A stretch of DNA of 64,000 bases, taken from assembly GCF_009469605.1 (NCBI RefSeq), contig NZ_SSXU01000012.1, positions 62,001 to 126,000 on the forward strand. Direction: 5' to 3'. Below are positions 10,152 to 60,857 of this stretch, piece after piece. The DNA is from Zoogloea sp. 1C4. Lineage in GTDB: Bacteria; Pseudomonadota; Gammaproteobacteria; Burkholderiales; Rhodocyclaceae. How positions within the stretch are numbered: the first letter of the stretch is position 1; every line of letters begins with the position of its first letter. Position numbers and translations under genes: made by a program. The notes under the pieces were generated by a model. It searched no databases, was not told where the DNA came from, and saw only the letters and a program-made list of their open reading frames with translations.

Positions 10152-10187
10152 TTGATGCTTCCCCAGCCGACAAGCACAGGTTCAGCC

Positions 10188-11708: not shown

Positions 11709-11741
11709 AGGATCGGGATGAAGTTCCTTGGAGAGACATGA

Positions 11742-12620
11742 ATGGTCGGTTCGCGCATACCTGACAGCCTTTTGAATCCGGTTGAACAGCAAGGCTTCGA
11801 TTTCGGAATCTCGTCTCAAGCACCGTATGCCGTTCCGGGCCCGCTCGGCATCTATCAAGCCTCGCCCGGGAGCCCCCAGTTTCTCCCGCGGGCGCAAAAG
11901 GTGCTGCTCAGCCCGGCTTTCCGAGAGTCTGTCCAGATTACCAGCAGCATGACTGCGCCAATGGCATGGGATGCGTATTGGCGGTTAGCGTACGATCACG
12001 CCGACAAGGTATTGCAGGTGCAGGCCAATGAACTCCTTCGGCGCGGGAACATCACCAACATCGAGTTTGAGGAAATGGTCCGGGCGCGTAACACATTGGT
12101 CGAAGAGTTTCGAAAGCCGTTGACTCCTTTCGCCAAGCAGTATTCGGAAATTCTGAAACCGGGTTCCAAGCTCCCGCAGCCGAGCGATTTGCTGGCCCGA
12201 AAGGGCAGCATCGAAGCCGTGCTGGAAAGTGTCGGCAAATCACGTGCTACCGTTAATCGGTTGAGCATGGTGTTTCGCGTGGCGGGATCGACCCTGATTG
12301 TTCTGGACATCACAGTGACGACCATGGTCGTGATGCAGGTGCCTTCGGAACAGCGCGGTCGTACGGCTGCACGTGAATACACAGGCTTGGGCGTTGGTGC
12401 GGCAGGTGGTGTCGGCGGTGCGTGGGCCGGTTGCGTTTCCCTGGCGGCCCTGGGATCGCCAACCCTGGCTGTACCGGTCGTTGGTGAGGTGACCACGGGG
12501 ACGTTGTGTGTTGTCGGCGGTATTTTGGGCGGACTCGGAGGTGGCTGGATTGGGCGCGAGACCGGGAAAGCCGCGGGTGAAGCCGCTTACGATTTTGTGA
12601 CGACGTTCAGATGGGAATGA
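11742..12620 (+). CDS. Unknown protein with glycine-zipper membrane region, possible effector toxin
   Basis: I do not recognise this 292-residue protein by name. It has no signal peptide. Residues 1-170 are soluble and partly helical. Residues about 177-200 form a hydrophobic segment (FRVAGSTLIVLDITV). Residues 214-272 are a glycine-rich membrane-like zone with GVGAAGGVGGAWAG and GGILGGLGGGWIG. A C-terminal glycine-zipper region like this is common in pore-forming effector domains of polymorphic toxins. GGAGAG lies six bases before the ATG. The next gene overlaps it by 10 nt. G+C is visibly lower than in ilvA and the chemoreceptor genes, which suggests acquired DNA. The toxin role is inference only; no secretion gene or PAAR/VgrG/Rhs partner is nearby. 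Confidence 0.6.
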   Translation: MVGSRIPDSLLNPVEQQGFDFGISSQAPYAVPGPLGIYQASPGSPQFLPRAQKVLLSPAFRESVQITSSMTAPMAWDAYWRLAYDHADKVLQVQANELLRRGNITNIEFEEMVRARNTLVEEFRKPLTPFAKQYSEILKPGSKLPQPSDLLARKGSIEAVLESVGKSRATVNRLSMVFRVAGSTLIVLDITVTTMVVMQVPSEQRGRTAAREYTGLGVGAAGGVGGAWAGCVSLAALGSPTLAVPVVGEVTTGTLCVVGGILGGLGGGWIGRETGKAAGEAAYDFVTTFRWE

Positions 12621-13000
12621 TCGCGCGCTACCTCAAACGCCTGGCTGCCTTGATTCGGCGGGGGCGAGTCGAAGCGCTGGCGGTTTCGGCTGACGCCGCT
12701 GGCGTGTCGATGGGTAGCGAGCGGGTGTCGTGGTGTGACGTGCGTCGTCTGGATGCCTGCAAGCGCGACATCTACGCTGGCGAATTGCTTTGTCTGGTGA
12801 TCCTTGCCAAGGATGGGCGCGTGTATGAATTCAACGAGGAAATGCCAGGCTGGCAGGCGCTCGGCGAAGCGATCGAGCGTTACCTGCCAGAATCATTGTC
12901 CCGCGCCGAGTGGGCAATGAAGCTGATTGCCGCGCCGTCGGGCGAGGTGGTGGCGGTTTTTCCCGCGGCTCGAACGGAGTGGTTTCGGGTACGGTCGTGA
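12611..13000 (+). CDS. Small conserved protein, candidate immunity protein
   Basis: This is a 129-residue cytoplasmic protein starting 10 nt inside the end of the preceding gene, so the two are translationally coupled. The central pattern, VSWCDVRRLDACKRDIY, LLCLVILAKDGRVYEFNEEMPGW and EAIERYLPE, resembles a family of small proteins often found beside secreted toxin genes. I rely on memory of that pattern, not on a search. Its lower G+C matches its partner. If the partner is a membrane-active toxin, the lack of membrane segments here would make it an unusual, soluble inhibitor. An alternative start is ATG 12617. Confidence 0.55.
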   Translation: MGMIARYLKRLAALIRRGRVEALAVSADAAGVSMGSERVSWCDVRRLDACKRDIYAGELLCLVILAKDGRVYEFNEEMPGWQALGEAIERYLPESLSRAEWAMKLIAAPSGEVVAVFPAARTEWFRVRS

Positions 13001-13251
13001 TGCACGGCTTGACCCTGGGCTGACCACCGCCACGCAACGAGGCCGGCAACTCGGACAAACGCCGGCCGACTCGGACCCAACACCTTCCGGCTCAAGCCGC
13101 CGCCGGCAGGCATCTCGCCTCTGCGCTCAGGTGCTTCGACCACCGTCTCGAACTGCATGTGGCTCCCGGTTGATCGCGGGCCAGACGCACAAGCCTTGCT
13201 GCAGTTCCGCGAGCCCAGCACAACCCAGCCGACTACGGGGCTCCTGAACCT
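13001..13251. other. Intergenic region, no gene recognised
   Basis: These 251 bases lie between the convergent candidate immunity gene and chemoreceptor gene. I see no convincing reading frame, RNA gene or terminator with a T run. It may hold the right boundary of the lower-GC insertion. Confidence 0.4.
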
Positions 13252-14709
13252 TCAGGCCCGCCCGGCGTGCTTGTCGGCGACGAACTGGTCGAGCAGCTCC
13301 ATCACCTGGCGGCTACCGGTTTCCATGTTGTTGAGCTCGTCCACGATCTGCGACTGGATCGTGGCGTCGTTCTGCCAGTCCTTTTCGAGCAGCGCCAGCA
13401 CCCGGTGGGCACTGTCGTGCACCAGCGCGTGGGGCGCCTCCAGCTTGCCGTAGGCCGGCAGCTGCCCGAACAGAGCCTTCCCGTCGCCCCGGTACCAGCG
13501 GCCCAGGCGGCACTCCTCGTGGCCGACCGCCACCGGCGCACCGTGTTCGCAGTCACCGTCGCTGTTGAGCGACAGATAGGTGCGCTGCTTGTAGATCATG
13601 TGGTCGAGCTTCACCAGGGTCGCGAAGCTCTTGTCGTGTACCTCCGCGGCCTGGTGTTCGGTCTGGCTCGCCGCTGTCGCAAAGCGCCCGAAGGTGGCGG
13701 CCAGATCGCCCACCACCTGCTGCGAACACGCAGTCATCTCCTTCATCTCGCGGGCATTCGACTGCATCGCCTCGCTCTGGCCGATCAGGCCCTGCATCAC
13801 CTCGCCGATCGACTGGGATGCGCCGCGGGTCTTTTCGGCCAGCTTGCGCACCTCGTCCGCCACCACCGCAAAGCCGCGGCCCGATTCACCGGCCCGGGCC
13901 GCCTCGATCGCCGCGTTGAGGGCCAGCAGGTTGGTCTGGTCGGAGATCTCGTTGATCAGCGCCACCGACATCGCCACCTCGCGGCTGCGGGCGGTCATCT
14001 CGTCGATGGCCGACGCCACCTGCAGGATGCGCGTGCCGATGCCGTCGAGCTGCGACACCACCTCGGTCACGGTGCGCTGACTCTCGCCCGCCTCGCTGGC
14101 GGTGGCCGTGGCGGTCGCCGCGGCTTCGTGCATCTGAGCGGTGATCGCCAGCATGTCGGCCTGGTTGCCGGTGAGGTTGTTGATCAGGTTGCCGGCGTTG
14201 AGCATGCCGGCGTTGCTCAGCAGCAGGGTCTTCATCTGGCCGCGCAGATGGGCCGCCATCGACGCCAGCAGGGTGTTGTGGGCGGTCATCGCCGCCTGCA
14301 GCCCGCCGTGCAGGCCGGAGCGCTGGCCGATGCGCGCGTAGCGCCCGTCCATCTGCGCCCGGAAGGCGCTTTCGGACTCGCGGAAATACGCCTCCAGCTG
14401 GTCGAGCAGATCGTTCATCGCCCACCCCAGCCGGCCGATCTCGTCCTGATCGCCGATGCCGGTGATGCGCGACGAGAAATCCCCCTCGCCGACCTTCCCG
14501 GCCAGCGCCAGCAACCCGTCCAGCGGCGCCAGCGCCTGCCGCAGCCGGCGCAGCCCCCAGGCGGCAAGCGCGACGCCCGCCACCAGCCACATCAGCATCA
14601 GCGGGTGCGATCCGCCGACGAAGAACCCCGTCACCAGCGCCGCCAGCAGCAGCGCCGCCTGGCCCCACAGGAGCAGCGCCAGCCTAGAGCGCAAGGACGA
14701 ACTGTTCAT
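13252..14709 (-). CDS. Methyl-accepting chemotaxis protein with C-terminal CZB zinc domain
   Basis: This 485-residue chemoreceptor has two adjacent N-terminal transmembrane segments (residues about 8-50) with no periplasmic sensor domain, then HAMP-like sequence ([15 protein letters not shown]) and the signalling hairpin tip ([24 protein letters not shown], quoted in part). The tail is a CZB domain with zinc-ligand signatures [18 protein letters not shown] and [12 protein letters not shown] domains bind zinc and can sense hypochlorous acid or zinc. The gene overlaps the upstream PAS gene by 26 nt. With no periplasmic domain of its own, it probably takes its input from that PAS protein, a split version of Aer. 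Confidence 0.93.
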
Positions 14710-44908: not shown

Positions 44909-45151
44909 TTGGTTTTAATGAATTATTGACATGTTTTGAATTAACCCAATTTGGTTCAATTCATCGGAATGTCGGTCGTGATTTCCGTCACATAGATCGA
45001 AGGTTATAGAAGGGAATTCCGTTCGCCTCTTTGCATAATTTGACAATCATTTGTCAGATTGTGATTCATGGACCGCCACGAAGTCGAAACGCACCTTGTC
45101 GGTGATTTTCATGACATCTCGCTTCATGAACTTGCGAACCGGGAATTCCCC

Positions 45152-45760
45152 ATGTCGACAGCTGTTCTGTTTGTTACCACCGATGCCAGGGTCGTTCCGC
45201 CGGGCCTCGTGAAGGTCGCGAAGATCACCGATTCCGTCGAGGACGCGCTCAGGATGTGCGCATCCGCGAGCTTCGGTGCGGTCTTCTGCGACGCAGCGTC
45301 CCTGGCCAATGGCGGCAGCGGGTTCCGCCTCGGAAGGCAGATGCGCCGCAATGGCATCGCGACGCCGCTATTCCTCATGACGAATTCGCTGCTTTCCGGC
45401 ATGGAAGGCATGGCCGTCGCTTCTGGTGCGACGGGATTCATCAGCCGCACGGCAGCGGCAATTCTCGATGCGCTCAAGTCGGTTGCGATGGGGGTCGTCC
45501 CATCCGCCGAGCCCGCCCCGAAAGCGGTGGCGAGAATCGATCAGCCTCTTCCCGAAATTGACGTCGTGATAGAAGGCGCGCGAATCCTGCTCAGGAAATA
45601 CGCGGGTCCGGTCGCCAGCATGATGGTCGATGACGTTCTCGACGAGCTCTATTCAAAACATCCCGATGGTGTTCCTGTCGGTGTCTTTGCCGAAGCTGTT
45701 GCCGCCCATGTGAATAGCGGCAAGGCGCGGTCCGATTTTCTCCGTGAATTGCTGGCCTGA
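45152..45760 (+). CDS. Pseudo-receiver domain protein with C-terminal domain
   Basis: This 202-residue protein begins with a response-regulator-like receiver fold (VLFVTTDARVVPPGLVKVAK, then FGAVFCDAASL, with an aspartate in the phosphoacceptor position). The switch lysine near the end of the domain is replaced by arginine (FISRTAAAI). A C-terminal segment (IEGARILLRKYAGPVASMM, DDVLDELYSKHPDGVPVGVF) has no effector DNA-binding signature. ATG 45152 is chosen, with GGGAA upstream; ATG 45068 in the same frame lacks a ribosome site. It lies 11 nt upstream of the haem sensor gene, suggesting it takes input from it. Confidence 0.7.
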   Translation: MSTAVLFVTTDARVVPPGLVKVAKITDSVEDALRMCASASFGAVFCDAASLANGGSGFRLGRQMRRNGIATPLFLMTNSLLSGMEGMAVASGATGFISRTAAAILDALKSVAMGVVPSAEPAPKAVARIDQPLPEIDVVIEGARILLRKYAGPVASMMVDDVLDELYSKHPDGVPVGVFAEAVAAHVNSGKARSDFLRELLA

Positions 45761-45771: not shown

Positions 45772-46737
45772 ATGAACGTCTTCAAGAAACTCTCCCTTTC
45801 CTATCAATTCACGCTGATCCTGATCGTGCTGGCGCTCGTGGCGGCAATGGCCAGCTATCTCATCGGCTCATCCGTTTATGTGAGCGAGATCCGCAACCAG
45901 GCCCGCACCGTGGCGGACATGGTGGATAACTTTGGCCAATGGGCCACCCGTTACCGCGGCGTGTGGGTGAAGGACGATCCCCGCGATCCCAAACTGCAGG
46001 TGGGCAGCTTCCTGGAGCGCGAGGCGTCTTCGACGGCGGCTGGCGGCGATTCGACCATGTCGAACCTGGCTGCCTTCCATCGCAAGAACCCCGCGCTGGT
46101 GCAGCGCGAGCTGTCGGACATCACGATGGCTTCGCCGGCGAAGGCCAAGTTCCGGATGACGTCCGACCGGTTCATGAACCCCAACAATGCGCCGTCCGAA
46201 TTCGACAAGGTGGCGATGAACGCGATCCGCGAATCCGGGGCAACCGAGTACAGCGAAGTCCGCGACGGCCAGCTGCTGTATGCCCGCCGCCTGGTGGCGG
46301 AAAAGGGCTGTCTGCGCTGCCACGGGGTGCCCGCCGAGGCGCCGCCCGCGGTTGCTGCGCTCTACCCTGGGCCCCAGGGCTACGGCTATGAGGAAGGCAA
46401 GCTCGCCGGCGTGATCAGCGTGGCGATTCCCCTGGAATTCAGCTTTGCCGGCTTCGTTCAGCGCTTCGACCGCCAGGTGTGGCTGGCGCTGGGGGCGATC
46501 GCTGTCGGCGTGGCCGGTCTGCTGCTCTTCATCCGTCAGCAGGTGATCGTGCCGGTCCGTAAGGTGCGGGAGTTTGCCCTCGCGGCGTCCAACTCCGAGC
46601 CCGGAGCCAAGCTCGACAAGGTGGAGTTCGTCGAGGGTGAGCACGCCTCGGCCAACGAAATCCACGAACTCAATACGGCGGTCAAGGCGATGCACACCTC
46701 GATCGAATATCTCTACCGCAAGATGACTAAGCGCTGA
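45772..46737 (+). CDS. Membrane sensor with c-type haem domain (DUF3365-like)
   Basis: This 321-residue protein has a transmembrane segment near residue 14-34 (FTLILIVLALVAAMASYLIG, 20 residues), a periplasmic region with one covalent haem motif, CLRCH, flanked by sequence typical of DUF3365 sensors (RYRGVWVKDDP, MNPNNAPSEFDK, LYPGPQGYGYEEG), a second transmembrane helix (residues about 241-259) and HAMP-like sequence with a short cytoplasmic tail. No kinase or cyclase follows within the protein. It may sense redox or a haem ligand and signal through the adjacent pseudo-receiver. Confidence 0.83.
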   Translation: MNVFKKLSLSYQFTLILIVLALVAAMASYLIGSSVYVSEIRNQARTVADMVDNFGQWATRYRGVWVKDDPRDPKLQVGSFLEREASSTAAGGDSTMSNLAAFHRKNPALVQRELSDITMASPAKAKFRMTSDRFMNPNNAPSEFDKVAMNAIRESGATEYSEVRDGQLLYARRLVAEKGCLRCHGVPAEAPPAVAALYPGPQGYGYEEGKLAGVISVAIPLEFSFAGFVQRFDRQVWLALGAIAVGVAGLLLFIRQQVIVPVRKVREFALAASNSEPGAKLDKVEFVEGEHASANEIHELNTAVKAMHTSIEYLYRKMTKR

Positions 46738-47347: not shown

Positions 47348-49228
47348 TTACTTCCAGTCGCCGCGAAGCATCGCAACCTGCAGCTGAACCTGCGGCAGGC
47401 TGGCGGTTTCCGGCGGCAGGGCTGGCCCGGCCACCAGCTCGATGCGGCTGAACAGGCCGCGCCGGAAAGGGCGCGACAGGGCCGGGCCGTCCTTGCGCGA
47501 GAACATGCTGCCCCACAGCCCGCGCAGGGCCATCGGCACCACCGGCACCGGGTTGGCGTCAAGGATGCGCGCAAGCCCCGGACGGAACGGGCACAGCTCG
47601 CCATCGGCGGTGATCTTCCCTTCCGGAAACAGCCCGATCAGCTCGCCCTCGGCCAGCGCCTTCGACACTTCGGCGAAGGCCGCTTCCATCATCACCGCGT
47701 CTTCCTTGGCCGGTGCGATCGGGATAGCCCGGCTGTGGCGGAACACGAACGACAGCACCGGCCAGCGGAAGATCCGGTGGTCCATCACGAAGCGGATTGG
47801 CCGCCGGCACGCCGCCGCGATCACCAGCGCATCCACGAAGCTCACGTGGTTGCACACCAGCACCGCCGGCCCTTCGGCCGGAATGTGCTCGATGCCTTCG
47901 GTGCGCAGGCGATACACGCTATGCACCAGCAGCCACACGATGAAGCGCAGCAGGAACTCCGGCACCAGCCGGTAGATGTAGATCGCCACCGCCGCGTTCA
48001 TCAGCGCCGCCACGCCGAACAGCATCGGGATCGTCAGCCCGGCGCCCAGCAGCGCCCCGGCCGACAGGGCGCCAACCACCATGAACAGCGCGTTGAGGAT
48101 GTTGTTGGCGGCGATGATCCGCGCCCGTTGGGCCGGCGCCGAGCGGCTCTGCATCATCGCGTAGAGCGGCACGATGAAGAAGCCGCCGAACACCCCCAGC
48201 ATCAGCAGCGCCAGCAGCACCCGGAACATGCCCGGCTGGGCCAGCACCGCGCCGATCGCCAGTGGCGCCCCGGCTGGCACCACCGACGGCGAGGCCAGCG
48301 CGATGTCCAGCCCGAACAGGGTGAGCCCGATCGAACCGAAGGGCACCAGCCCGATCTCCACATGACCGCCGGAGAGCTTCTCGCACAGCAGCGAGCCCAG
48401 CCCGATGCCGATCGTGAAGGTGGCCAGCAGCAGCGTCACCGTGCCCTCGCCGCCGCCCAGCACGTTCTTCGCGTAGGCCGGAAACTGGGCCAGGAACAGC
48501 GCGCCGTACAGCCAGAACCACGAGATCCCCATGATCGCCAGAAACACCGGTCGATCCTTGCGGGCGAAGCCGATGTTGCGCCAGGTCTCGGAGATCGGGT
48601 TGGGATTGACCTTCAGCCCGGGTTCCGGTGCCGGGGCCGGCGGCACGCCACGGCTGGTGAGATAGCCCGCCACCGCCACCACCAGCCCGCCACCGGCAAT
48701 CCACAGGTCACCGTGGTCGGCCGCCGCCAACAGCCCGCCCACCAGTGTGCCGAGCAGGATCGCCACGAAGGTGCCCGCCTCGACCAGCGCATTGCCGCCG
48801 ACGAGCTCGTCTTCGTGCAGGTGCTGGGGTAGCAGCGCGTACTTCACCGGCCCGAACAGTGTGGAATGACAGCCGAGCAGGAACAGCGCGCCCAGCAGCA
48901 CCGTCAGGCTGTGGGCCAGGAAGCCCGCGAGCGCCACCGCCATGATGGCGATCTCCAGCACCTTCACCAGCCGGGTGAGGTACGCCTTGTCGTACTTGTC
49001 GGCGAGTTGGCCGGCGCTGGCCGAGAACAGGAAGAATGGCAGGATGAAGATCCCCGCCGCCAGGTTGGCCAGCAGCGCCGGGTCGATGGTCGTCCAGCTG
49101 GCCGCCTGGAAGGTGAGCAGCACCACCAGCGCGTTCTTGAACAGGTTGTCGTTGAACGCCCCGAGAAACTGGGTCAGGAAGAACGGGCGGAAGCGCTGCT
49201 CGCGGAGCAGGCGGAACTGGGAACTCAT
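47348..49228 (-). CDS. MFS transporter fused to a PlsC-type acyltransferase (LplT-like)
   Basis: This 626-residue inner-membrane protein begins with an MFS domain (residues 1 to about 430) similar to LplT, the lysophospholipid flippase, and ends in a PlsC acyltransferase domain with the HX4D motif NHVSFVD and FPEGKIT. In E. coli lplT and aas are separate genes; here an Aas homologue is in the same operon, and the MFS domain also carries an acyltransferase. It would import lysophospholipids and re-acylate them. The start overlaps the amidohydrolase stop (ATGA). It is the last gene of the operon. Confidence 0.9.
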   Translation of the reverse strand: MSSQFRLLREQRFRPFFLTQFLGAFNDNLFKNALVVLLTFQAASWTTIDPALLANLAAGIFILPFFLFSASAGQLADKYDKAYLTRLVKVLEIAIMAVALAGFLAHSLTVLLGALFLLGCHSTLFGPVKYALLPQHLHEDELVGGNALVEAGTFVAILLGTLVGGLLAAADHGDLWIAGGGLVVAVAGYLTSRGVPPAPAPEPGLKVNPNPISETWRNIGFARKDRPVFLAIMGISWFWLYGALFLAQFPAYAKNVLGGGEGTVTLLLATFTIGIGLGSLLCEKLSGGHVEIGLVPFGSIGLTLFGLDIALASPSVVPAGAPLAIGAVLAQPGMFRVLLALLMLGVFGGFFIVPLYAMMQSRSAPAQRARIIAANNILNALFMVVGALSAGALLGAGLTIPMLFGVAALMNAAVAIYIYRLVPEFLLRFIVWLLVHSVYRLRTEGIEHIPAEGPAVLVCNHVSFVDALVIAAACRRPIRFVMDHRIFRWPVLSFVFRHSRAIPIAPAKEDAVMMEAAFAEVSKALAEGELIGLFPEGKITADGELCPFRPGLARILDANPVPVVPMALRGLWGSMFSRKDGPALSRPFRRGLFSRIELVAGPALPPETASLPQVQLQVAMLRGDWK

Positions 49229-50457
49229 GGGGTTTTCCGGTCGAAGAAGGCCCGCGTCTCGAAGACGCCGGTGGCAAAACGTTGGGCCCCCGCGCGCAGC
49301 GTGCGCTTGAGGACGAAATCGAAAAGCAGCGGATTGTGCTCGCGAATGGTTTCAAGCACCGGCACGGCGTGGGCCGGCAGGAGTTTTTCGGCCGCCAGCT
49401 GGGCCGGCGAGACCAGCGGCAGGATGCCGGGCAGTGGATAGTCGGTGCCGAACAGCAGACGGGCATGCCAGTCGTCGCGCTCGACGAGCTGGCGGATCAC
49501 GTCGATGCGCCGGTTGCGCAGGGTGATCGCAGAGATGTCGCCAAAGAGCCGGCCCTCGGCGCGCGGTTCGGCCATCAGCCGGGCGAAGAGATCGAAGCTG
49601 GCGACCTTGCCGCCATGCAGGCGGTCTTCGTCGCGATCTTCGCCGAGGGTTGCGCAGTGGGCGACGACCACCCGCACGCCGTGATCCAGCGCCCGGCGCA
49701 GGCGCAGCGGGTTGCCCCATTCCGGCCGGCCGGCGCCGTGGACGGCCTTCTCCTCGCCGGCGTGGGTGATGAGCGGCAGGTCGAGCCGGGCCAGCGCCGT
49801 GTAGAAGCGGTCGCAGGCCGGCGAGGCCGGGTCGATGCCCATGGCTGGCGGCAGCCATTTCACCGCCCGGGCGCCATCGCGCGCGGCGGCTTCCAGCGCC
49901 TCGACGCAGTCTTCCCGCAGCGGGTGGATCGAGCAGGCCCACTCGAAGTAAGCCGGATGGGCGCGGGCCACGTCGCGGGCGTAGCGGTCGGGCACGTGGA
50001 AGGCGGTGAGATCGGGGCGTGGCCGGCCGCTGGCGTCGTGGGTCTGCTCGAAGGCGAAGAGCACCAGCTTGAAGCTCGGCCGCATGCCGTCGGCCAGGTT
50101 GTGCAGGCGTTCCACGTAGCTCTGGTCCACCCGGCCCTGCGCCTCGTGGGCGCAGCCGGCGTTGAGGTAGAACAGGCGCTGGATGTATTCGGTGGGGTGG
50201 AGCGGGCTCAGCATCCGCGGGTTCATCTGGATGCCTCCGCCGCTGTCGCCGGTGCCGGCGAGGTGGGCGTGGACGTCCCACAGCTTGCCCGCATCGATGC
50301 CGTCCCACGCAGCGCGGACGATGTCGTGCTCGAGGACGGCCGGTGGCAACGTGGCGCGGCACGGATTCCACACCCGCTGACGGGCGGCACTGGCCGCGCC
50401 GACGCCCAGCAGCGCCGAGGCGCCCAGCCCGGCCAGCAGAAAATGACGGCGATTCAT
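49225..50457 (-). CDS. Tat-exported amidohydrolase (metal-dependent hydrolase)
   Basis: This 410-residue protein begins with a twin-arginine signal (MNRRHFLLAGLG, cleaved near ASA-AR). The mature part is an amidohydrolase-2-type TIM barrel: HxH in DVHAHLAG, then KWLPPA, ITHAGEEK, VVVAHCAT and FGTDYPLP, which supply metal ligands and the catalytic aspartate. It acts outside the inner membrane. It lies between rhombosortase and the MFS/acyltransferase genes, overlapping both by about 4 nt. The substrate is unknown. Confidence 0.85.
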   Translation of the reverse strand: MNRRHFLLAGLGASALLGVGAASAARQRVWNPCRATLPPAVLEHDIVRAAWDGIDAGKLWDVHAHLAGTGDSGGGIQMNPRMLSPLHPTEYIQRLFYLNAGCAHEAQGRVDQSYVERLHNLADGMRPSFKLVLFAFEQTHDASGRPRPDLTAFHVPDRYARDVARAHPAYFEWACSIHPLREDCVEALEAAARDGARAVKWLPPAMGIDPASPACDRFYTALARLDLPLITHAGEEKAVHGAGRPEWGNPLRLRRALDHGVRVVVAHCATLGEDRDEDRLHGGKVASFDLFARLMAEPRAEGRLFGDISAITLRNRRIDVIRQLVERDDWHARLLFGTDYPLPGILPLVSPAQLAAEKLLPAHAVPVLETIREHNPLLFDFVLKRTLRAGAQRFATGVFETRAFFDRKTP

Positions 50458-50993
50458 CGTGGGTTTCGTCTCAAATGAAGCCAGCCGGCGGTGGCGAGGC
50501 CCAGCAACAATCCACCCAGATGGGCCGGCCAGGCGACGGCGATGCCTTCCGGCAGGAGCGCGGATTGACTGCCGGTGAAGGCATCGAAGCCGAGCTTGGC
50601 CAGGTAGGCCGCCGCCAGAATCCGCCCGACGAGCCCGCCTTCGATTGCCGCGCCCACCACCAGCATGGCCACCAACCCGGACAGACCGCGGTAGCGCTCC
50701 AGCCCTGGCACGGCCGCCAGCAGGAAGAGGGAAAGCAGCGGCGCCACCAGCGGCAGCGCGGCCAGCCACGGGCGGATCGGCCGGCCGGCGATCACGCAGA
50801 TCGCCACCGCCGCCGCCAGGTTGCCGGCCAGATGGAGCACCGACCAGTGGCAGAACTGGCCCGTCCATAGCCGCCAGAGCTGACCTTCGGCGACCGCCTG
50901 GCGGTTCAGCTCCATCGCCTCGCCCGGCAGCAGGCTGGCGACCAGCAGCAGCCCGGCGGGCAACCCCAGGCGCCAATGTTCAGCCAGCACGAC
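50454..50993 (-). CDS. rrtA: Rhombosortase (rhomboid-family processing protease)
   Basis: Rhombosortases are rhomboid-like membrane proteases that cleave the C-terminal GlyGly-CTERM signal of exported proteins. This about 179-residue protein has six hydrophobic segments, the WRLWTGQFCHWSVLHLAGN motif (CHxxxxHLxxN-like), the catalytic serine in YRGLSGLVAML and a catalytic histidine in AWPAHLGGLLLGL. The rhombosortase target-like lipoprotein is encoded directly upstream and overlaps it. The start is uncertain: GTG 50993 fits best, TTG 51026 is in frame. Short size and GLSG favour rhombosortase over a generic rhomboid. Confidence 0.85.
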   Translation of the reverse strand, partial: VVLAEHWRLGLPAGLLLVASLLPGEAMELNRQAVAEGQLWRLWTGQFCHWSVLHLAGNLAAAVAICVIAGRPIRPWLAALPLVAPLLSLFLLAAVPGLERYRGLSGLVAMLVVGAAIEGGLVGRILAAAYLAKLGFDAFTGSQSALLPEGIAVAWPAHLGGLLLGLATAGWLHLRRNPR

Positions 50994-51801
50994 GTCGGTA
51001 GATCGCCACGGCGGCCGTGACGCCAAACAGGCCCAGGCCGGCGAGCCCGCTGTCGCCGCCGGAGCTGCGCGAGGTGTGGATGATGCGGGCGGCGTTCTGC
51101 TCCTTTACCCGCTGCCGGAAGGCTTCCAGTTGGGCGTCGAGTTGCGGGATGAGCGAGTCCACCGCCTGGCGGTAGCCTTCGGTACGGGCCTCGCGGGATG
51201 CCTCGCCAAACTTGACCAGCGGCGAGCTGCCCTTGAGCTGGCTGGTGCCCGGGGCGCGGAACAGCAGCTGGCGGCTCGCCACGTCGAAAACCGACGCATC
51301 CACCAGCGTGCTCACGTCGTACTGGCTGCCGTTGACGAGATAGCCGCCGACGATGGTCCAGTAGAAGACCGACAGCCGGTTGTTGTCGCTGAACTGCATC
51401 TGGTCGTAGGACAGGAGGACGACCACATCCACGTTGAACATGCGGGCGGCCTGCTCCAGGTTGCCGAAGCCGCCGCCGCTACGCAGGTAGGTTGTCGGGA
51501 TCACCTGGATGCTGTCGATGTAGGGCCGGTTGGAGAAGGCGCTCTTGACGCGGTTGAGCAGGTTGTTGCGTTCGACTTCCGGCAGGTCTCCCCTGAGGTC
51601 GCCGGGCACGAAGGCGATGCCGACGCGCAGCGGCAGGTGCAGCTCTGGGACGGTGGGCTTGAGCGCGGGCCGCTCGTTCTGCGGGTACAGATAATCCACG
51701 ACGCTGGCGCGGTGGGTGCTCTCGGGGGGATTGAACCAGGTGGCGCAGCCGGTGGAAATCAGTGCTGAGGCGACGAGGGCGGCAAGGGTGCGATGACGCA
51801 T
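50980..51801 (-). CDS. Rhombotarget lipoprotein with GlyGly-CTERM-like tail
   Basis: This 273-residue protein has a lipobox (LISTGC, lipidated Cys near 19) and a C-terminal tail SSGGDSGLAGLGLFGVTAAV (20 residues) ending in IYRRRAG: a Gly/Ser motif, a hydrophobic segment and a basic end, as in GlyGly-CTERM sorting signals. The middle part (LRVGIAFVPGDLRGDLPEVE, VVVLLSYDQMQF) is an alpha/beta domain. Its closest match by architecture is the rhombotarget lipoprotein family, which occurs next to rhombosortase. Being lipidated at the N-terminus and cut at the C-terminus is unusual. The SD is GGAGAA. Confidence 0.83.
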   Translation of the reverse strand: MRHRTLAALVASALISTGCATWFNPPESTHRASVVDYLYPQNERPALKPTVPELHLPLRVGIAFVPGDLRGDLPEVERNNLLNRVKSAFSNRPYIDSIQVIPTTYLRSGGGFGNLEQAARMFNVDVVVLLSYDQMQFSDNNRLSVFYWTIVGGYLVNGSQYDVSTLVDASVFDVASRQLLFRAPGTSQLKGSSPLVKFGEASREARTEGYRQAVDSLIPQLDAQLEAFRQRVKEQNAARIIHTSRSSGGDSGLAGLGLFGVTAAVAIYRRRAG

Positions 51802-51816
51802 GGGTTCTCCGGGTTG

Positions 51817-53955
51817 TCAGGCCTTCTCGGCCCATTGTTTGAGGGTGACGTAGTCGATCTTGCCGGTGCCGAGCAGCGGCAGCGCATCAACCAGGACGAC
51901 CCGGCGTGGCACAGCGATCTCCGGCCAGCCGCCATCGCGGGCGGCGGCCTGGAGGCGGTCGCGGGTGAGCGTCGGATCGGTGGAAAACAGCAGGATGTTC
52001 TCGCCGCGGCTGGCGTCGGGCTGGGTCGAGGCAGCGTGAGCCGCGCCGGGCGCGGCGGCGGCGGCGAGCTTCTCGACCGCTTCGAGGGACACCATCTCGC
52101 CGGCGACCTTGGCGAAGCGCTTCACCCGGCCGACGATCTTCACGAAACCGTCGTCGTCGATCTCCACCACGTCGCCGGTTTCGTACCAGCCTTCGCCGGC
52201 GGGCGAGACGGGCGGCTGCAGCACGCCGGGCTGCTCGAAGCGGAGGTAGCCGGACATCAGGTTGGGGCCCTTCACGTGGAGCATGCCGCCGGACGGGATG
52301 CCGGGCACCGGCACCAGCTGGTGCTGGATGCCTGGCAGGAACTGCCCGACCGTGCCGCTGCGGAAGGCCATCGGCGTATTGACGGCCAGCACCGGCGCGG
52401 TTTCGGTGGCGCCGTAGCCTTCGAAGATGCGGATGCCGAACTTCTCGAACCACAGGTCGCGCACCGGCGTGGTGAGCTTCTCGGCGCCGGCGATCACGTA
52501 GCGCAGGCGGTAGAAATCGTAGGGGTGGGCAAACTTGGCGTAGTTGCCCAGGAAGGTGCTGGTGCCCAGCAGCACCGTGCAGTTGCGGTCGTAGGCGAGC
52601 TCGGGGATCACCCGGTAATGCAGCGGCGACGGGTAGAGGAAGACCTTGGCTCCAGCCAGCACCGGCAGCAGCCCACCGGCGGTGAGGCCAAAGGAGTGGA
52701 ACAGCGGCAGCGCGTTGAGGATCTTGTCGTCGATGGAGAAATCCACTACCGCGCGGATCTGGGCGATGTTGGCGAGGAGCGCCCGGTGCGACAGCACCAC
52801 GCCCTTCGGCTTGCCTTCGGAGCCGGAGGTGAACAGCACCACCGCGGCGTCTTCCGGCGAGCCGGCGGGCAGCGCGGCGCGGGGGAAGGGTAGCGCCCAG
52901 GCCATCAACCAGAGCTTGTCGCCGAGGGTCATCCGGTCGCGCAGATCTTCCAGCCACACCAGACGCACATCGGTGAGCGCCGCCAGCTTGTCGCCCAGCT
53001 TGGCCTGCTCGACGAACGCGCGGGAGGTGAGGATGGTGCGGATCTGCCCGGCGGTGCAGGCGGCCTGCATGCCATCGACGCCGGCGGTGTAGTTGAGCAT
53101 CGCCGCCACGCGTCGGTGGGCGGTGAGGCCGAAGACCAGCCCGAGGGTGGGCGCCAGGTTGGGCAGCAGCAGGCCGACCCGCTCGCCAGGCGTGCTCTCG
53201 CGGGCCACCAGGCGGCCGAGGGCGAGGGACATCTTGATGAGATCCCGGTAGGTGTATTCGATCTGCTTCAGATCCTCGACCAGCGTGTGGCCGTGGCCCT
53301 GGATGTCGGCGGCATCGAGGATCGCCTCGAACAGGGTTTGCGTGGGGCGGGTGGCGAAGATCATGTCCTGCATCAGCCGCCGCATCGCCTCGCCAGCCTT
53401 GCGGCGACGCTGGCGGGCGGTGGACGCCACCGGCATCGGGATCGTCGTGGTGGGGCGCAGGAACAGGCTGATCTGGGGGAACAGGCGCTTCGGCACATGG
53501 GCCGCGAGCCGCGAGAAGTAGCTGCGCGCCGCGCCGTCGATGCGCACCGGGAGGATGGTCGCACCGGTCTTGGCGGCGACGAAGGCCGGGCCGTCGTAGG
53601 TCTTCATCAGGCTGCCGGTGGTCGTGATGCGCCCCTCCGGAAAGATCACCACCGGTCTTCCCTCTTCTATAAGACGGATGACCTTCTTCATGGCCATCGG
53701 GCTGGTGGGGTCGACGGCGAGGTAATCCACCAGGCTCAGCATCAGCCTGAAGAGCGGATTGCGCACCACGCCGGTGTGCACCACGAACACCGGGTCCAGG
53801 GGCAGGAACAGCCCGAGGAGCAGGCCGTCGAGGAAGGATTCGTGATTGGCCACCACCAGCAGGCGCGAGCGGACATCGGGCAGCGCTCCGGCGACCCGCA
53901 CACGGAACAGCAGGCCGGCCACCCGGCGCAGAACGGACTTGACGAGATTTCGCAT
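51817..53955 (-). CDS. aas: Bifunctional acyl-[ACP]--phospholipid O-acyltransferase/acyl-ACP synthetase
   Basis: Aas re-acylates lysophosphatidylethanolamine at the inner membrane using acyl-ACP that it activates itself. The 712-residue protein is near the E. coli length (719) and follows it throughout: a PlsC domain (NHESFLDGLLLGLFLP, FPEGRITTTGSLMKTYDG) and an AMP-binding domain (LFTSGSEGKPKGVVLSHRAL, ALPLFHSFGLTAGG, GYGATETAPVLAVN, YETGDVVEIDDDGF). It starts 17 nt after the arsR gene and is followed 15 nt later by the lipoprotein gene, so all are one transcript. Confidence 0.95.
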   Translation of the reverse strand: MRNLVKSVLRRVAGLLFRVRVAGALPDVRSRLLVVANHESFLDGLLLGLFLPLDPVFVVHTGVVRNPLFRLMLSLVDYLAVDPTSPMAMKKVIRLIEEGRPVVIFPEGRITTTGSLMKTYDGPAFVAAKTGATILPVRIDGAARSYFSRLAAHVPKRLFPQISLFLRPTTTIPMPVASTARQRRRKAGEAMRRLMQDMIFATRPTQTLFEAILDAADIQGHGHTLVEDLKQIEYTYRDLIKMSLALGRLVARESTPGERVGLLLPNLAPTLGLVFGLTAHRRVAAMLNYTAGVDGMQAACTAGQIRTILTSRAFVEQAKLGDKLAALTDVRLVWLEDLRDRMTLGDKLWLMAWALPFPRAALPAGSPEDAAVVLFTSGSEGKPKGVVLSHRALLANIAQIRAVVDFSIDDKILNALPLFHSFGLTAGGLLPVLAGAKVFLYPSPLHYRVIPELAYDRNCTVLLGTSTFLGNYAKFAHPYDFYRLRYVIAGAEKLTTPVRDLWFEKFGIRIFEGYGATETAPVLAVNTPMAFRSGTVGQFLPGIQHQLVPVPGIPSGGMLHVKGPNLMSGYLRFEQPGVLQPPVSPAGEGWYETGDVVEIDDDGFVKIVGRVKRFAKVAGEMVSLEAVEKLAAAAAPGAAHAASTQPDASRGENILLFSTDPTLTRDRLQAAARDGGWPEIAVPRRVVLVDALPLLGTGKIDYVTLKQWAEKA

Positions 53956-53972
53956 GATTCGTGCGGAGTGGA

Positions 53973-54284
53973 TCAGAGATCGGTGTCGAGGTAAGTCGTC
54001 ACCTTGCCGAAGGCGTCTTGCAGGAAAGGCTTGTTTACATGGAAGTAAATCTCCTTGCCCTGCCGCTCGGCGATCAGCACGCCAGCCTCGCGGAGCACCT
54101 TGAGGTGGTGGGAAACCGTGGAGCGGGCGAGGGTCGAGACCTCTGCGATCTGCCCCACGTTGAGGCGCTCACCCGGCTCGAAGGTGAGCAGGATGCGCTG
54201 GCGATGTTCATCGCCCAGCGCGGCAAAGATGGCGGAGATATCACGCCATGTTTCGGGGATCGACCGGGAGTAGTTCTTGTTCAT
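53973..54284 (-). CDS. ArsR-family transcriptional regulator
   Basis: This 103-residue winged-helix regulator has the ArsR fold: IFAALGDEHRQRILLTFEPG, then LNVGQIAEVSTLARSTVSHH (recognition helix, 20 residues) and LREAGVLIAERQGKEIYFHV. There are no CxC-type metal ligands in the usual place, so it is not an arsenite sensor of the classic kind. It is the first gene of the aas-rhombosortase operon and a dyad over its start codon suggests autoregulation. The start may be 54284 or 54296. Confidence 0.88.
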   Translation of the reverse strand: MNKNYSRSIPETWRDISAIFAALGDEHRQRILLTFEPGERLNVGQIAEVSTLARSTVSHHLKVLREAGVLIAERQGKEIYFHVNKPFLQDAFGKVTTYLDTDL

Positions 54285-54303
54285 GTCGATAATCATCGAT
54301 ATG
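54282..54303. promoter_or_regulatory. Dyad operator candidate over the arsR start
   Basis: The 22-base stretch 54282-54303 matches its own reverse complement at 18 positions and includes two ATCGA-type half sites. It covers the arsR start codon region, so it could be the site of autoregulation. Confidence 0.5.
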
Positions 54304-54384
54304 TTTTTCGGGCATGTCAAGCGCCCCCTTGTGGCGAACTGCGGAATTTCAAGCCCCTGATGCGATGTTGCGGTGCGTCAGTAA

Positions 54385-54469: not shown

Positions 54470-54811
54470 ATGTTCAAAGCGGTATTCCTGCAGATAGGCG
54501 CGACAATTCTGACGGCATTGATCGTCGGAGCGATTACAGGGGTGCGCGGTGCGTTGTCGGCGGCGTTGGGAGGCGCAGCCTGTGTTCTTCCCAATTTGTT
54601 GTTCGCCCTGCGCCTGCACTTTGTTTCAAAGCGGCCGGCTGCGTCGTACCCGCTTGCGTTTTTTGTTGGCGAGTTTCTGAAGATCGCGTCAACCGTAGGA
54701 TTGTTGGCGACCGTTCAACTCGTGTATCCAGACGTCCATTGGTTGGCGTTGTTCATCGGGTTGGTCGTGGCGCTTAAGGCGAATTTGTTTGCATTTTTGG
54801 TGAAGACCTGA
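54470..54811 (+). CDS. atpI: ATP synthase assembly protein I
   Basis: AtpI is a small membrane protein thought to help assemble the c-ring or move magnesium. This 113-residue protein has four hydrophobic helices ([38 protein letters not shown]) and sits first in the operon, 2 nt before atpB. It is usually poorly conserved; the position supports the call. Confidence 0.85.
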
Positions 54812-54813
54812 CC

Positions 54814-55656
54814 ATGAGTACTGGCCACGAAGCCCACGCACCCACCGCTGGCGAATATATCGTCCACCACCTGACCCACCTGAACAGCACGGGTCATGCC
54901 CAGACTGCGATCATTGACTGGAGTGTCTGGAACCTTGACACCCTGTTCTTCTCGATCGGTCTCGGCATCGTCACGCTGCTGATCCTGATCAAGTGCGCGA
55001 GCAGCGCCACTTCCGGTGTTCCCGGCCGCTTCCAGGCCGCAATCGAAATTCTCGTCGAGATGGTCGCCGACCAGGCCAAGGGCATCGTGCATAGCGCCGA
55101 ATCCCGCAAGTTCGTCGCGCCCGTCGCTCTCACGGTGTTCTTCTGGATCTTCCTGATGAACTCCATGGACTTCCTGCCGGTCGATCTGCTTCCCAAGATC
55201 TGGGCGCTCATCTCCGGTGACGAGCACGCTTACCTCCGCGTCGTTCCCACCGCCGACCTGAACGGCACCCTCGGCATGTCCATTGGTGTCCTGCTGATCT
55301 GTCTGTACTACAACATCAAGATCAAGGGTTTTGGTGGCTGGGTGCATGAGCTCTTCACCGCGCCGTTCGGTTCCCACCCGCTCCTGTATCCGATCAACTT
55401 CCTGATGCAGATGATCGAATTCCTGGCCAAGACCGTCTCCCACGGCATGCGACTGTTCGGCAACATGTACGCTGGCGAACTGGTGTTCATGCTGATCGCG
55501 CTGATGGGCGGCACCGCCACTGTCTTCGGCTTCCTCGGTCATGTCGTTGCGGGCTCCATCTGGGCCGTCTTCCACATCCTGATCGTCGCCCTGCAGGCCT
55601 TCATCTTCATGATGCTGACCCTGGTGTACATTGGTCAGGCGCACGAAAGCCACTAA
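54814..55656 (+). CDS. atpB: ATP synthase Fo subunit a
   Basis: Subunit a forms the proton half-channels beside the c-ring. The 280-residue protein has several membrane helices and the conserved arginine in [19 protein letters not shown], essential for proton passage. It begins [15 protein letters not shown]. Gene order and sequence match the standard atpB. Confidence 0.97.
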
Positions 55657-55693
55657 GTTTCAGTTTCAAGCAGTCGTTTCGGTTTCTATTTAA

Positions 55694-55963
<270 letters not shown>

Positions 55964-55998
55964 GTTTCGCGGTTCAACCTGACTAAAGGAAGATTACC

Positions 55999-56472
55999 GT
56001 GAATCTGAACGCAACCCTGGTAGCCCAGCTCGTTGTGTTCTTCATTCTGGCGTGGGTCACGATGAAGTTCGTGTGGCCCCCCATTGTGAAGGCACTCGAT
56101 GAGCGCGCGAAGAAGATCGCTGACGGGCTGGCGGCTGCGGACAAGGCGAAGAGCGATCTCGCACATGCCGAGAAGAAAGTCGTCGAAGAAATGCGCAAGG
56201 CCCGCGAGTCCGCTACGGACGTCCGTGCCTCTGCTGAAAAGCAGGCCGCAGTATTCCTCGACGAAGCGCGCGCCGAAGCCGCCCGAATCATTGCCCAGGC
56301 CCGTGAAGCCGCCGAAGCCGAAGCCGGCGTCGCTGCTCAGCGTGCCAAGGAAGCCCTGCGCGATCAGGTCGCCCATCTGGCTGTCGCTGGTGCCGAGAAG
56401 ATCCTCCGCAAGGAGATCAACGCTCAGGCCCATGCTGACCTGCTGGCCAACCTGAAACAGGAACTTCAATAA
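55999..56472 (+). CDS. atpF: ATP synthase Fo subunit b
   Basis: Subunit b is the peripheral stalk: 157 residues, one N-terminal membrane helix ([20 protein letters not shown]) and a long charged helix rich in Ala, Lys and Glu ([20 protein letters not shown], 20 residues). GTG start, with AAAGGAAG upstream. Confidence 0.96.
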
Positions 56473-56475
56473 GCC

Positions 56476-57012
56476 ATGGCCGAGAACGTCACCATCGCAC
56501 GCCCCTATGCTGAAGCAGCCTTTCAGCTCGCTTCTGCGGGCAATGCGCTGGGGCCTTGGTCGGAAGCACTTGATCAGCTGTCGGCAATCGCCACTGATCC
56601 GCAAATGCGGGATTGCATCACCGATCCCAAGCTCCAGCCCGAGCAACTGGCTGGACTCTTCCTCGATGTGGCCGGTACCGGACTGACTGCCGAACAGCAG
56701 AACTATGTCCGCGTTCTTGTCGACAACGAGCGTCTGCAAGTGCTTCCCGAGATCCGTGACCTGTTCGTTGCTCTCAAGAACGAACACGAAGGTGTCAAGG
56801 AGGCGAGCATCGCCTCTGCCTTCCCGATGGACGATTCCACGCTGAAGACGTTGATCGCCGACCTTGAAGCCCGCTTCAAGGCCAAGCTCAACGTAACCGT
56901 CAGTGTCGACCCCGAGTTGATCGGTGGGGTCAAGATCGCCGTTGGGGATGAAGTCATCGACGCCTCGGTCCGCGGCAAGCTCGCGAACATGGCCGCCGCG
57001 CTAAAGAACTAG
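56476..57012 (+). CDS. atpH: ATP synthase F1 subunit delta
   Basis: Delta links the stalk to F1. The 178-residue protein has the N-terminal [12 protein letters not shown] motif and the C-terminal [20 protein letters not shown] (20 residues), with [10 protein letters not shown]. The start is 3 nt after atpF. Confidence 0.96.
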
Positions 57013-57023
57013 GAGCATAAGCT

Positions 57024-58562
<1,539 letters not shown>

Positions 58563-58583
58563 CGCGGGCATACGGAGAGCAAT

Positions 58584-59453
58584 ATGGCTAGCGGTAAAGA
58601 GATCCGTAACAAGATCAAGAGTGTCCAGAACACTAAAAAGATCACCAAAGCCATGGAGATGGTGGCAGCGTCCAAGATGCGGAAGGCTCAAGACCGCATG
58701 CGGGCTGCCCGTCCCTACGCCGAGAAGATCCGCCGTCTCGCCGCGAATCTGTCTGCAGCCAACATCACCGACTACAAGCATCCGTTCCTCGTCAAGAAGG
58801 ACAATGCCAAGCGTGTGGGGCTCATCGTCGTCACGACCGACAAGGGTCTGTGCGGTGGCCTCAACACCAACACCTTGCGTGTCGGGTTGAACGCGCTCAA
58901 GGATTGGGAAAGCAATGGAGTCACCGACATTCGCGTGACCGCCATCGGTAACAAGGGGCTGGGTTTCATGCAGCGTCTGGGTGCCAAGGTGGTCTCGCAT
59001 GTCACCCAGCTCGGGGACACTCCCCACCTGGAAAAGCTGATCGGACCCGTCAAGGTCATGATCGATGCGTTCCAGAATGGCGAGCTGGATGAAGTGCACA
59101 TTGTTTACTCCCGCTTCATCAATACGATGAAGCAGGAACCTCAGCTTGAGCAGCTTCTCCCGCTGACCGGCGAGCGTCTCGGTACCCCGGAAGGGAACTG
59201 GGACTACCTCTACGAGCCGGATGCGCAGGTGGTGATCGACGAACTCCTGGTGCGCTACGTCGAAGCGCTGGTGTACCAGGCCGTCGCCGAGAACATGGCG
59301 TCCGAACAGAGTGCCCGGATGGTGGCGATGAAGGCAGCCTCCGACAACGCAGGAAGCGTGATCGGCGAACTCCAACTGGTCTACAACAAGACCCGTCAGG
59401 CCGCGATCACCAAGGAACTGTCTGAAATTGTCGGCGGCGCAGCCGCGGTGTAA
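58584..59453 (+). CDS. atpG: ATP synthase F1 subunit gamma
   Basis: The central shaft: 289 residues, with N-terminal helix [20 protein letters not shown] (20 residues), [16 protein letters not shown] and the C-terminal [18 protein letters not shown]. It starts 21 nt after atpA. Confidence 0.97.

Positions 59454-60857
<1,404 letters not shown>

What the first reader, a model, noticed from the sequence alone, without database searches (positions are those of the whole stretch)
47348..54320. Rhombosortase locus built into a phospholipid-remodelling operon
Six leftward genes with 15-17-nt gaps or overlaps read arsR, aas, rhombotarget lipoprotein, rhombosortase, Tat amidohydrolase, MFS-PlsC (LplT-like). 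A processing protease and its likely lipoprotein substrate are thus co-transcribed with both halves of the lysophospholipid recycling system (Aas and an LplT-type flippase carrying its own acyltransferase). I recall reports that a rhombosortase substrate in Vibrio cholerae is left with a glycerophosphoethanolamine-containing C-terminus. If the transfer consumes phosphatidylethanolamine or lysophosphatidylethanolamine, Aas and LplT functions in the same operon would make sense, and the amidohydrolase could act on the modified product. Known: the families. Inference: the combined system.
Basis: partly seen in the sequence, partly recalled or inferred. Interest (0 to 1): 0.85.

Follow-up and report, generated by a model that had tools for sequence, protein, structure and literature searches.

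The report
Rhombosortase pair in lysophospholipid-repair operon
In a Zoogloea-like bacterium, a membrane protease and the lipoprotein it probably trims sit inside an operon for repairing damaged membrane lipids; in several distant bacteria the lipoprotein also lies beside such repair genes, which suggests it is an unrecognised helper in that repair.

Summary
The six-gene leftward operon is real: arsR, aas, rhombotarget lipoprotein (rtl), rhombosortase (rrt), Tat-type amidohydrolase (amh) and an LplT-like MFS fused to PlsC. Pairing of rhombosortase with an adjacent single target is known; I found no paper joining it to lysophospholipids. In the same family the operon occurs without rtl-rrt, and in 6 of 17 downstream regions of relatives it continues into Arc3A (DUF2339), a defence factor against a phospholipase toxin. 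So it looks like a lysophospholipid-repair operon that gained rtl-rrt in this genus. Outside the genus, rtl lies within 7 kb of aas/lplT-type genes in 6 of 91 loci. In 70 genomes, 5 of 62 Aas or MFS-PlsC copies are rtl-linked against 0.21 expected (P 3e-6; about 1e-5 to 2e-5 if omitted loci are allowed for). The link seems to follow rtl rather than rrt: one clade lacks rrt and the rtl tail yet keeps rtl in the operon, a gammaproteobacterium has fused Aas beside a tail-less rtl, and 0 of 19 stand-alone rrt loci have lipid genes nearby (weak alone). I favour rtl as an envelope lipoprotein of lysophospholipid repair and rrt as its maturation protease.

The parts
53973..54320 (-). arsR: ArsR/SmtB-type regulator (start codon uncertain; ATGs at 54296 and 54284)
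   Evidence: NF033788 70 bits over cut-off 55; PF01022
51817..53955 (-). aas: acyl-ACP synthetase / 2-acyl-glycerophosphoethanolamine acyltransferase
   Evidence: NF005959 976 bits over 886; PF01553 + PF00501; only full-length match in the genome at E 1e-10
50980..51801 (-). rtl: rhombotarget lipoprotein with lipobox Cys19 and a C-terminal Gly-Gly / hydrophobic / Arg-rich tail
   Evidence: TIGR04179 273.5 bits over 150; Cys19 invariant in 10 aligned, nearly so in 55; model pLDDT 87; weak PelC/GNA1162/HpaA-like fold matches
50454..50990 (-). rrt: rhombosortase (GTG start at 50990 by eye, overlapping the rtl stop)
   Evidence: TIGR03902 93.8 bits over 84; GxSG Ser and later His columns invariant in 59 of 59 aligned
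49225..50457 (-). amh: amidohydrolase with a Tat-like signal (RRHFL near the N-terminus, motif recalled)
   Evidence: PF04909 43.8 bits over 26.4; ATGA overlap with rrt; 53% identical gene next to rrt in the distant L037
47348..49228 (-). LplT-like MFS transporter fused to a PlsC acyltransferase
   Evidence: PF07690 + PF01553; PRK06814 N-terminal half 558.5 bits, below its cut-off of 1349
54292..54320 (-). promoter-like site overlapping the longest arsR ORF
   Evidence: 10 of 12 consensus match; consensus match only

Best explanation
The operon recycles lysophospholipids, and probably protects against phospholipase damage. The LplT-like MFS-PlsC protein flips lysophospholipid from the periplasmic side and Aas re-acylates it. 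rtl is a periplasmic or outer-membrane lipoprotein of the same pathway, perhaps handling, sensing or delivering lysophospholipid or phospholipid between the membranes; this is inferred from repeated linkage and from its envelope-lipoprotein-like fold. rrt is the dedicated protease of rtl: it cuts the C-terminal membrane tail so that the N-terminally lipidated protein is freed from the inner membrane, perhaps leaving a PE remnant as on VesB. rrt is therefore a maturation step of one component, not the lipid consumer that explains Aas and LplT. Shown here: gene identities, operon structure, shared absence of tail and rrt in one clade, recurrence of rtl beside aas/lplT genes. Inferred: the pathway role of rtl, its location, the C-terminal product.
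For: Gene identities. Same-family operons arsR-aas-amh-MFS-PlsC lack rtl-rrt (L183, L186; L189 without arsR at a contig end). DUF2339 (Arc3A) follows MFS-PlsC in 6 of 17 downstream regions of family/order relatives (Pfam on 3 of the 6), and DUF3999 (Arc3B) in 2 of those 6 (by Pfam, by similarity). Arc3A prevents lysophospholipid accumulation under phospholipase attack, and aas genes neighbour arc3 genes in many bacteria (PMC8926400 passages; see also PMC12663445 passages). rtl is linked to Aas/LplT/MFS-PlsC in 6 of 91 loci outside the genus, in different forms: L037 rtl-rrt-amh divergent from tetR-aas-lplT; L040 aas-lplT 3 kb away; L054 lplT directly upstream; L056 MFS-PlsC, DUF2339, rtl, rrt; L058 MFS-PlsC directly upstream; L124 fused LplT-PlsC-Aas directly upstream. 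The label needs 7 changes on the rtl tree. 5 of 62 copies linked, expected 0.21, P 3.0e-6; 1.1e-5 to 2.2e-5 if the 21 omitted loci are allowed for. An XRE/HTH_26 regulator, 39 copies in 34 of 70 genomes, sits by rtl in 8 (expected 0.13, found post hoc), 4 of them beside aas/MFS-PlsC genes too. Tail and rrt are both absent in one supported clade of four species.
Against: 85 of 91 rtl loci outside the genus show no lipid-recycling gene within 7 kb, although only 47 of 91 have both 7-kb flanks. 50 of 70 rtl genomes have no Aas match and 26 of 70 no MFS-PlsC match at the thresholds used (plain LplT not counted), so any partnership is not obligatory. The rtl body says nothing about lipid binding, and its Foldseek matches are weak in TM-score (0.23-0.34 by query length for the 18 with E up to 0.001). 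The tail/rrt absence is one event in one clade. The Poisson test assumes uniform gene placement and ignores relatedness, and the 70 genomes were picked after with every linked locus kept. On the tree, starred branches alone do not force more than one or two origins. L037 and Zoogloea keep rrt and amh beside rtl, so a role for rrt is not excluded.
Confidence: 0.5

Rival explanations
1. One reading: rhombosortase transfers the rtl C-terminus to PE or lyso-PE, and Aas and the LplT-type protein replace or recycle the lipid used; amh acts on the product.
For: VesB carries ethanolamine/glycerophosphoethanolamine after rhombosortase cleavage (PMC6219818 passages). rrt sits in the operon in 16 of 21 other genus loci, and rrt-amh adjacency recurs in the distant L037.
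Against: rtl stays in the aas operon where rrt and tail are absent. Fused Aas neighbours a tail-less rtl in L124. 0 of 19 stand-alone rrt loci have Aas/LplT/MFS-PlsC (about one expected at the rtl rate, so weak). amh and MFS-PlsC occur without rrt in relatives. Whether rhombosortase is itself the transamidase is left open in PMC6219818.
Confidence: 0.15
2. Hitchhiking: the compact rtl-rrt pair is a travelling two-gene module that lands behind promoters of unrelated operons; the lipid setting in Zoogloea is chance.
For: rtl with an rrt-like gene close by is common (72 of 96 loci) among very different neighbours. The operon occurs without it. 85 of 91 loci outside the genus have no lipid gene within 7 kb.
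Against: 5 linked copies where 0.21 are expected (P 3e-6) and 7 changes on the tree. Apart from rrt, six neighbour clusters need 6 or more changes; representatives of three are a branched-chain ABC permease, GGDEF and AcrB and one looks like a TonB receptor (by eye), families that are usually multi-copy (recalled), whereas Aas/LplT and HTH_26 have about one copy per genome that carries them.
Confidence: 0.2
3. The link is through N-terminal lipidation: Lnt makes lyso-PE when it finishes lipoproteins, and Aas/LplT clear it; rtl is just one abundant lipoprotein.
For: Lnt by-product lyso-PE is recycled by LplT/Aas in E. coli (PMC11416262 passages). The lipobox Cys is kept in tail-less rtl too.
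Against: Lnt acts on lipoproteins in general, so this does not explain why this one family is the recurrent neighbour; no lnt gene was recognised in the operon.
Confidence: 0.12

Closest known systems
Rhombosortase / GlyGly-CTERM dedicated pair (Haft and Varghese 2011, PMC3237569; VesB in V. cholerae, PMC6219818)
   Same: TIGR03902 protease beside a target with Gly-Gly, hydrophobic and Arg-rich tail; [quoted passage not shown]
   Different: The target is also an N-terminal lipoprotein and lies in a lysophospholipid-recycling operon; a term search of that paper's text finds no 'lipoprotein', 'Aas', 'acyltransferase' or 'phospholipid'.
LplT-Aas lysophospholipid remodelling system (E. coli; PMC11416262)
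   Same: Aas over the NF005959 cut-off, with an LplT-like MFS in the same operon.
   Different: The MFS is fused to its own PlsC domain and falls below the LplT cut-off (89.3 against 297); extra genes rtl, rrt, amh and arsR.
Arc3 (Arc3A DUF2339, Arc3B DUF3999) phospholipase-toxin defence of Pseudomonas aeruginosa (PMC8926400)
   Same: Operons of the same make-up in the family carry DUF2339, in two cases with DUF3999, after MFS-PlsC; L056 has MFS-PlsC, DUF2339, rtl, rrt in a row.
   Different: No DUF2339 match in the window or in 3 downstream regions of genus members; rtl and rrt stand in the window's operon instead.

Membership tests
Rhombosortase (TIGR03902) | score over the curated cut-off | tested here: met
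   93.8 against 84
Rhombosortase (TIGR03902) | catalytic Ser in GxSG and a later His | tested here: met
   both columns invariant in 59 of 59, window included; role of the residues recalled
Rhombosortase (TIGR03902) | proteolysis and C-terminal modification of the target | not testable with these tools
   needs protein chemistry
GlyGly-CTERM tail | Gly-rich motif, hydrophobic helix, basic end | tested here: met
   by eye: SSGGDSGLAGLGLFGVTAAVAIYRRRAG; C-terminal helix 252-272 in the model
GlyGly-CTERM tail | hit by the 22-residue model TIGR03501 | tested here: not met
   no match at the rtl locus in the own genome at E up to 10; its one hit is on another contig. The model also rings in 11 of 14 control genomes, so it discriminates poorly in this search
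Rhombotarget lipoprotein (TIGR04179) | score over cut-off, lipobox Cys | tested here: met
   273.5 against 150; Cys19 invariant in 10
Aas (NF005959) | score over cut-off, PlsC plus AMP-binding domains | tested here: met
   976 against 886; both Pfam domains
LplT (NF008397) | score over cut-off | tested here: not met
   89.3 against 297; an LplT-like MFS fused to PlsC, so 'works like LplT' is inference
Arc3 system | DUF2339 (Arc3A) present in the operon | tested here: not met
   no window ORF matches the DUF2339 profile at E 1e-6; found in relatives' operons. The rest of the own genome was not searched for it

The most novel reading that the evidence does not exclude
The rhombotarget lipoprotein is an unrecognised third arm of lysophospholipid repair and phospholipase defence in Gram-negative bacteria, next to LplT/Aas and Arc3. 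It begins tethered at both ends (N-terminal lipid, C-terminal membrane helix), and rhombosortase cleavage, possibly with transfer to PE, releases it or re-anchors it. If the acceptor is PE itself, the protein's own maturation could report the PE/lyso-PE state of the inner membrane.
Probability: 0.3. Interest if true: 0.78.

Novelty: new variant of a known kind. Interest (0 to 1): 0.6.

Why it matters
Rhombosortase has been studied mainly for surface proteins of Vibrio cholerae, and I know of no assigned function for the rhombotarget lipoprotein family (8 papers hold the word 'rhombotarget', seen as a listing only). A repeated genetic link to lysophospholipid flipping and re-acylation gives the lipoprotein a directly testable role, ties it to a recently described defence against phospholipase toxins, and names a natural experiment (four rrt-less, tail-less species) for taking protease and lipoprotein apart.

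Tried and rejected
Considered and rejected: a dedicated rhombosortase-lipid machine as the ancestral operon (relatives have the operon without rtl-rrt); a metal-responsive operon because of ArsR (no metal gene recognised among the six; sensor function not tested); an anti-phage system (5 of the 6 window proteins, arsR not given, and 2 others: 0 of 7 match PADLOC). Led nowhere: sequence search of the rtl profile against solved structures (best E 0.16); amh against solved structures (best E 0.054, a haloalkane dehalogenase); the GlyGly-CTERM model for other targets (too weak to call). Rows dropped: 4 duplicate loci from the neighbour count; 5 truncated or frameshifted loci from the rtl tree. Of 71 deduplicated named loci outside the genus, 21 were left out because of the 50-locus limit: 10 Duganella/Rugamonas-type and 11 others, mostly short contigs. 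I chose them; every locus with a lipid link was kept and none of the 21 has one, so the expectation is somewhat low; one search gives the figure with them allowed for. The HTH_26 association was found post hoc and carries no corrected P value.
Full report
OBSERVATION. The six genes are present as described on the - strand and pass curated models for ArsR, Aas, rhombotarget lipoprotein and rhombosortase; the amidohydrolase and the MFS-PlsC protein are supported by Pfam. Intergenic distances are +17, +15, -11, -4 and -4 nt, with the rrt start taken as the GTG at 50990 (by eye). No terminator-like match lies in a gap between the genes, and one promoter-like match on this strand lies at the arsR start. 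The MFS protein is not an LplT by the curated cut-off; it resembles the N-terminal half of the fused acyl-ACP-phospholipid acyltransferase PRK06814. The genome holds one full-length aas match, one rrt over cut-off and one rtl. The nearest named relative is a Zoogloea MAG (L045, 93% over rtl); G528 and G522, classed as the same genus, have contigs of the same length as those of L045 and of the Zoogloea ramigera locus L046, so the window is taken as Zoogloea or close to it (inference).

RHOMBOSORTASE PAIR. The GxSG Ser and later His columns are invariant in 59 of 59 aligned rhombosortases including the window's. rtl has a lipobox Cys (invariant in 10) and ends in Gly-Gly, a hydrophobic stretch and Arg residues. 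Against this, the short GlyGly-CTERM model TIGR03501 did not list it; that model also rang in 11 of 14 control genomes. In 96 deduplicated rtl loci, an rrt-like gene (home-made profile, E 1e-3) lies within 3 kb in 72. Of the other 24, 22 genomes were put, and 18 of these have an rrt over the curated cut-off elsewhere; 4 (G159, G452, G595, G623) do not. Adjacent pairing in one-target genomes is known (PMC3237569, outline, section 15 and a term search seen).

THE OPERON WITHOUT THE PAIR. MFS-PlsC matches in 61 of 100 relatives. Regions around it were fetched for 21 other genus genomes (one genus genome, G521, had no match) and for 19 loci of the same family or order. In the genus, rtl is found in 19 of 21 and rrt in 16 of 21 (G515 has rrt without rtl, in a 72% complete genome). 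Outside the genus, no rtl or rrt match is seen in any of the 19, some of which are cut by contig ends, yet the other genes are there: arsR-aas-amh-MFS-PlsC in L183 and L186, aas-amh-MFS-PlsC in L189, amh-MFS-PlsC in L187, L191, L194 and L198, aas near MFS-PlsC in L192 and L195; 9 or 10 show MFS-PlsC without these partners in the fetched stretch. atpI and atpB are next door in six of them. On the MFS-PlsC tree the genus loci form one supported group (SH-aLRT 99), and presence of rtl needs three changes. The simplest reading is a gain of rtl-rrt in or near the genus ancestor, with L179 (G527; aas followed by MFS-PlsC after about 5 nt) either before the gain or a loss.

A NATURAL EXPERIMENT. Four genus members (L175-L178; G535, G529, G534, G533, all at least 99% complete) keep rtl between aas and MFS-PlsC but show neither rrt nor amh there, nor an rrt match at E 1e-10 anywhere in the genome. 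Their rtl ends at the body, without Gly-Gly, hydrophobic stretch or Arg end, while the lipobox remains. About 136 nt separate its stop from MFS-PlsC. They are one supported clade (100), so this is one event: protease and tail are gone together, the lipoprotein stayed in the lipid operon. The divergent rtl of L039 also has no hydrophobic tail, and its genome no rrt over cut-off. L124 is tail-less although its genome has an rrt elsewhere, so the coupling is not perfect.

WHAT THE OPERON IS. DUF2339 follows MFS-PlsC in 6 of 17 downstream regions of family/order relatives (L320-L325; Pfam run on 3 of the 6), and DUF3999 comes next in L323 (358.9 bits) and, by similarity, L324. It is absent from 3 downstream regions of genus members and from the window. 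These are the families of Arc3A and Arc3B of P. aeruginosa: Arc3 prevents lysophospholipid build-up under attack by the phospholipase toxin Tle3, and aas genes neighbour arc3 genes in many bacteria (PMC8926400, passages). [quoted passage not shown] LplT and Aas act together on lyso-PE made by Lnt, PldA, PagP and foreign phospholipases (PMC11416262, passages), and lysophospholipids may signal envelope state (PMC13170283, abstract and outline). So the host operon is best read as lysophospholipid repair.

DOES rtl FOLLOW LIPID GENES? Outside the genus, 6 of 91 deduplicated rtl loci have Aas, LplT or MFS-PlsC within 7 kb: L037 (rtl, rrt, amh divergent from tetR, aas, lplT), L040 (aas, and LplT 371 bits over 297; rtl without adjacent rrt), L054 (LplT, 458.9 over 297, directly upstream of rtl), L056 (MFS-PlsC, DUF2339, rtl, rrt), L058 (MFS-PlsC directly upstream), L124 (fused LplT-PlsC-Aas, 1512 over 1221, directly upstream). 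Gene order, gene form and regulator differ, and the label needs 7 changes on the rtl tree, genus included, although starred branches alone force far fewer (L040 has a very long branch). In 70 rtl genomes, Aas-like matches (E 1e-50) occur in 20 and MFS-PlsC-like ones (E 1e-20) in 44; counting genes hit by both queries once there are 62 copies, of which 5 lie within 7 kb of rtl against 0.21 expected, Poisson P 3.0e-6. The 70 were picked after with all linked loci kept; allowing for the 21 omitted gives an expectation of 0.28-0.32 and P of 1.1e-5 to 2.2e-5. L054, with a plain LplT, is not among the 5. An XRE-type regulator (HTH_26), noticed post hoc, with 39 copies in 34 of 70 genomes, lies by rtl in 8, expected 0.13; in L040, L056, L058 and L124 it stands beside the lipid genes, in L062, L078, L082 and L116 beside rtl alone. 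L062, L078 and L082 are near kin. The tests assume uniform placement and independence. Most rtl loci (85 of 91) show no such neighbour, with only 47 of 91 having both 7-kb flanks.

rtl OR rrt? Nineteen rrt loci that lie away from rtl, from rtl-bearing genomes, have no match (E 1e-10) to Aas, LplT, MFS-PlsC, DUF2339 or the HTH_26 regulator in the fetched stretches of 3.6 to 16.5 kb (0 of 19). Alone this is weak, since about one would be expected at the rtl rate, but with the tail-less clade, L124 and L040 it points to rtl as the partner of the lipid genes.

FOLD. The AlphaFold model of rtl (pLDDT 87) has 18 PDB matches with E up to 0.001, among them HpaA, PelC, a DUF330 protein, GNA1162, FlgT and uncharacterised proteins (best E 8.5e-5; TM-scores by query length 0.23-0.34); CsgG and LptE follow with weaker E. 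Several of these are envelope lipoproteins, some of them parts of lipid or polymer export (recalled). That fits a periplasmic or outer-membrane lipoprotein but does not fix a function.

NOVELTY. Families and pair are known. No paper in the searched library holds both 'rhombosortase' and 'lysophospholipid' (0); the 4 with 'rhombosortase' and 'acyltransferase' hold rhombosortase once each (listing; for one of them, PMC12802150, that place is a reference); the 8 with 'rhombotarget' (listing only) do not by their titles treat this family's function. The library holds open-licence papers only. I rate this a new variant of a known kind: a dedicated rhombosortase pair lodged in a lysophospholipid-repair operon, with recurrent evidence that the lipoprotein belongs there.

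Noticed in passing
L176 (G529), about 6860-13930: aas of one genus member is interrupted by an insert of about 7 kb with an Integrase_2 protein, a phage-integrase-family protein and a third small ORF, a Tn554-like trio (label recalled; Pfam).
   Followed up: partly
L040, L056, L058, L062, L078, L082, L116, L124 (for example L116:9105-9851:-): A low-copy XRE/HTH_26 regulator, with no NCBIfam match for the L116 copy, lies by rtl and in four cases also by aas/MFS-PlsC genes in 8 of 34 genomes that carry it; it may be a lipid-responsive regulator (speculation).
   Followed up: partly
L056:3993-11405: Sapientia aquatica has MFS-PlsC, a DUF2339 (Arc3A-type) protein in a 1332-codon ORF, rtl and rrt in a row, the only one of 96 rtl loci here with a DUF2339 match within 7 kb.
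   Followed up: partly
L166 (G526) and L167 (G515): Odd genus members: L166 (a MAG) shows no aas between arsR and rtl, and its rtl has an in-frame TAG; L167 (72% complete) has rrt directly after aas with no rtl. Assembly error is possible.
   Followed up: no
L163 and L174: Only a C-terminal remnant of the amidohydrolase is seen between rrt and MFS-PlsC, so amh looks dispensable in these species.
   Followed up: partly
window 54470-60857 (+): The operon is divergent from an ATP synthase gene cluster (atpI at 54470); this neighbourhood is kept in several family members that lack rtl-rrt.
   Followed up: partly
window 45772-46737 (+): A Tll0287-like protein (PF11845, 80.8 bits) next to a gene at 45068-45760 with a sub-threshold response-regulator match (20.5 bits against 30.2).
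   Followed up: no
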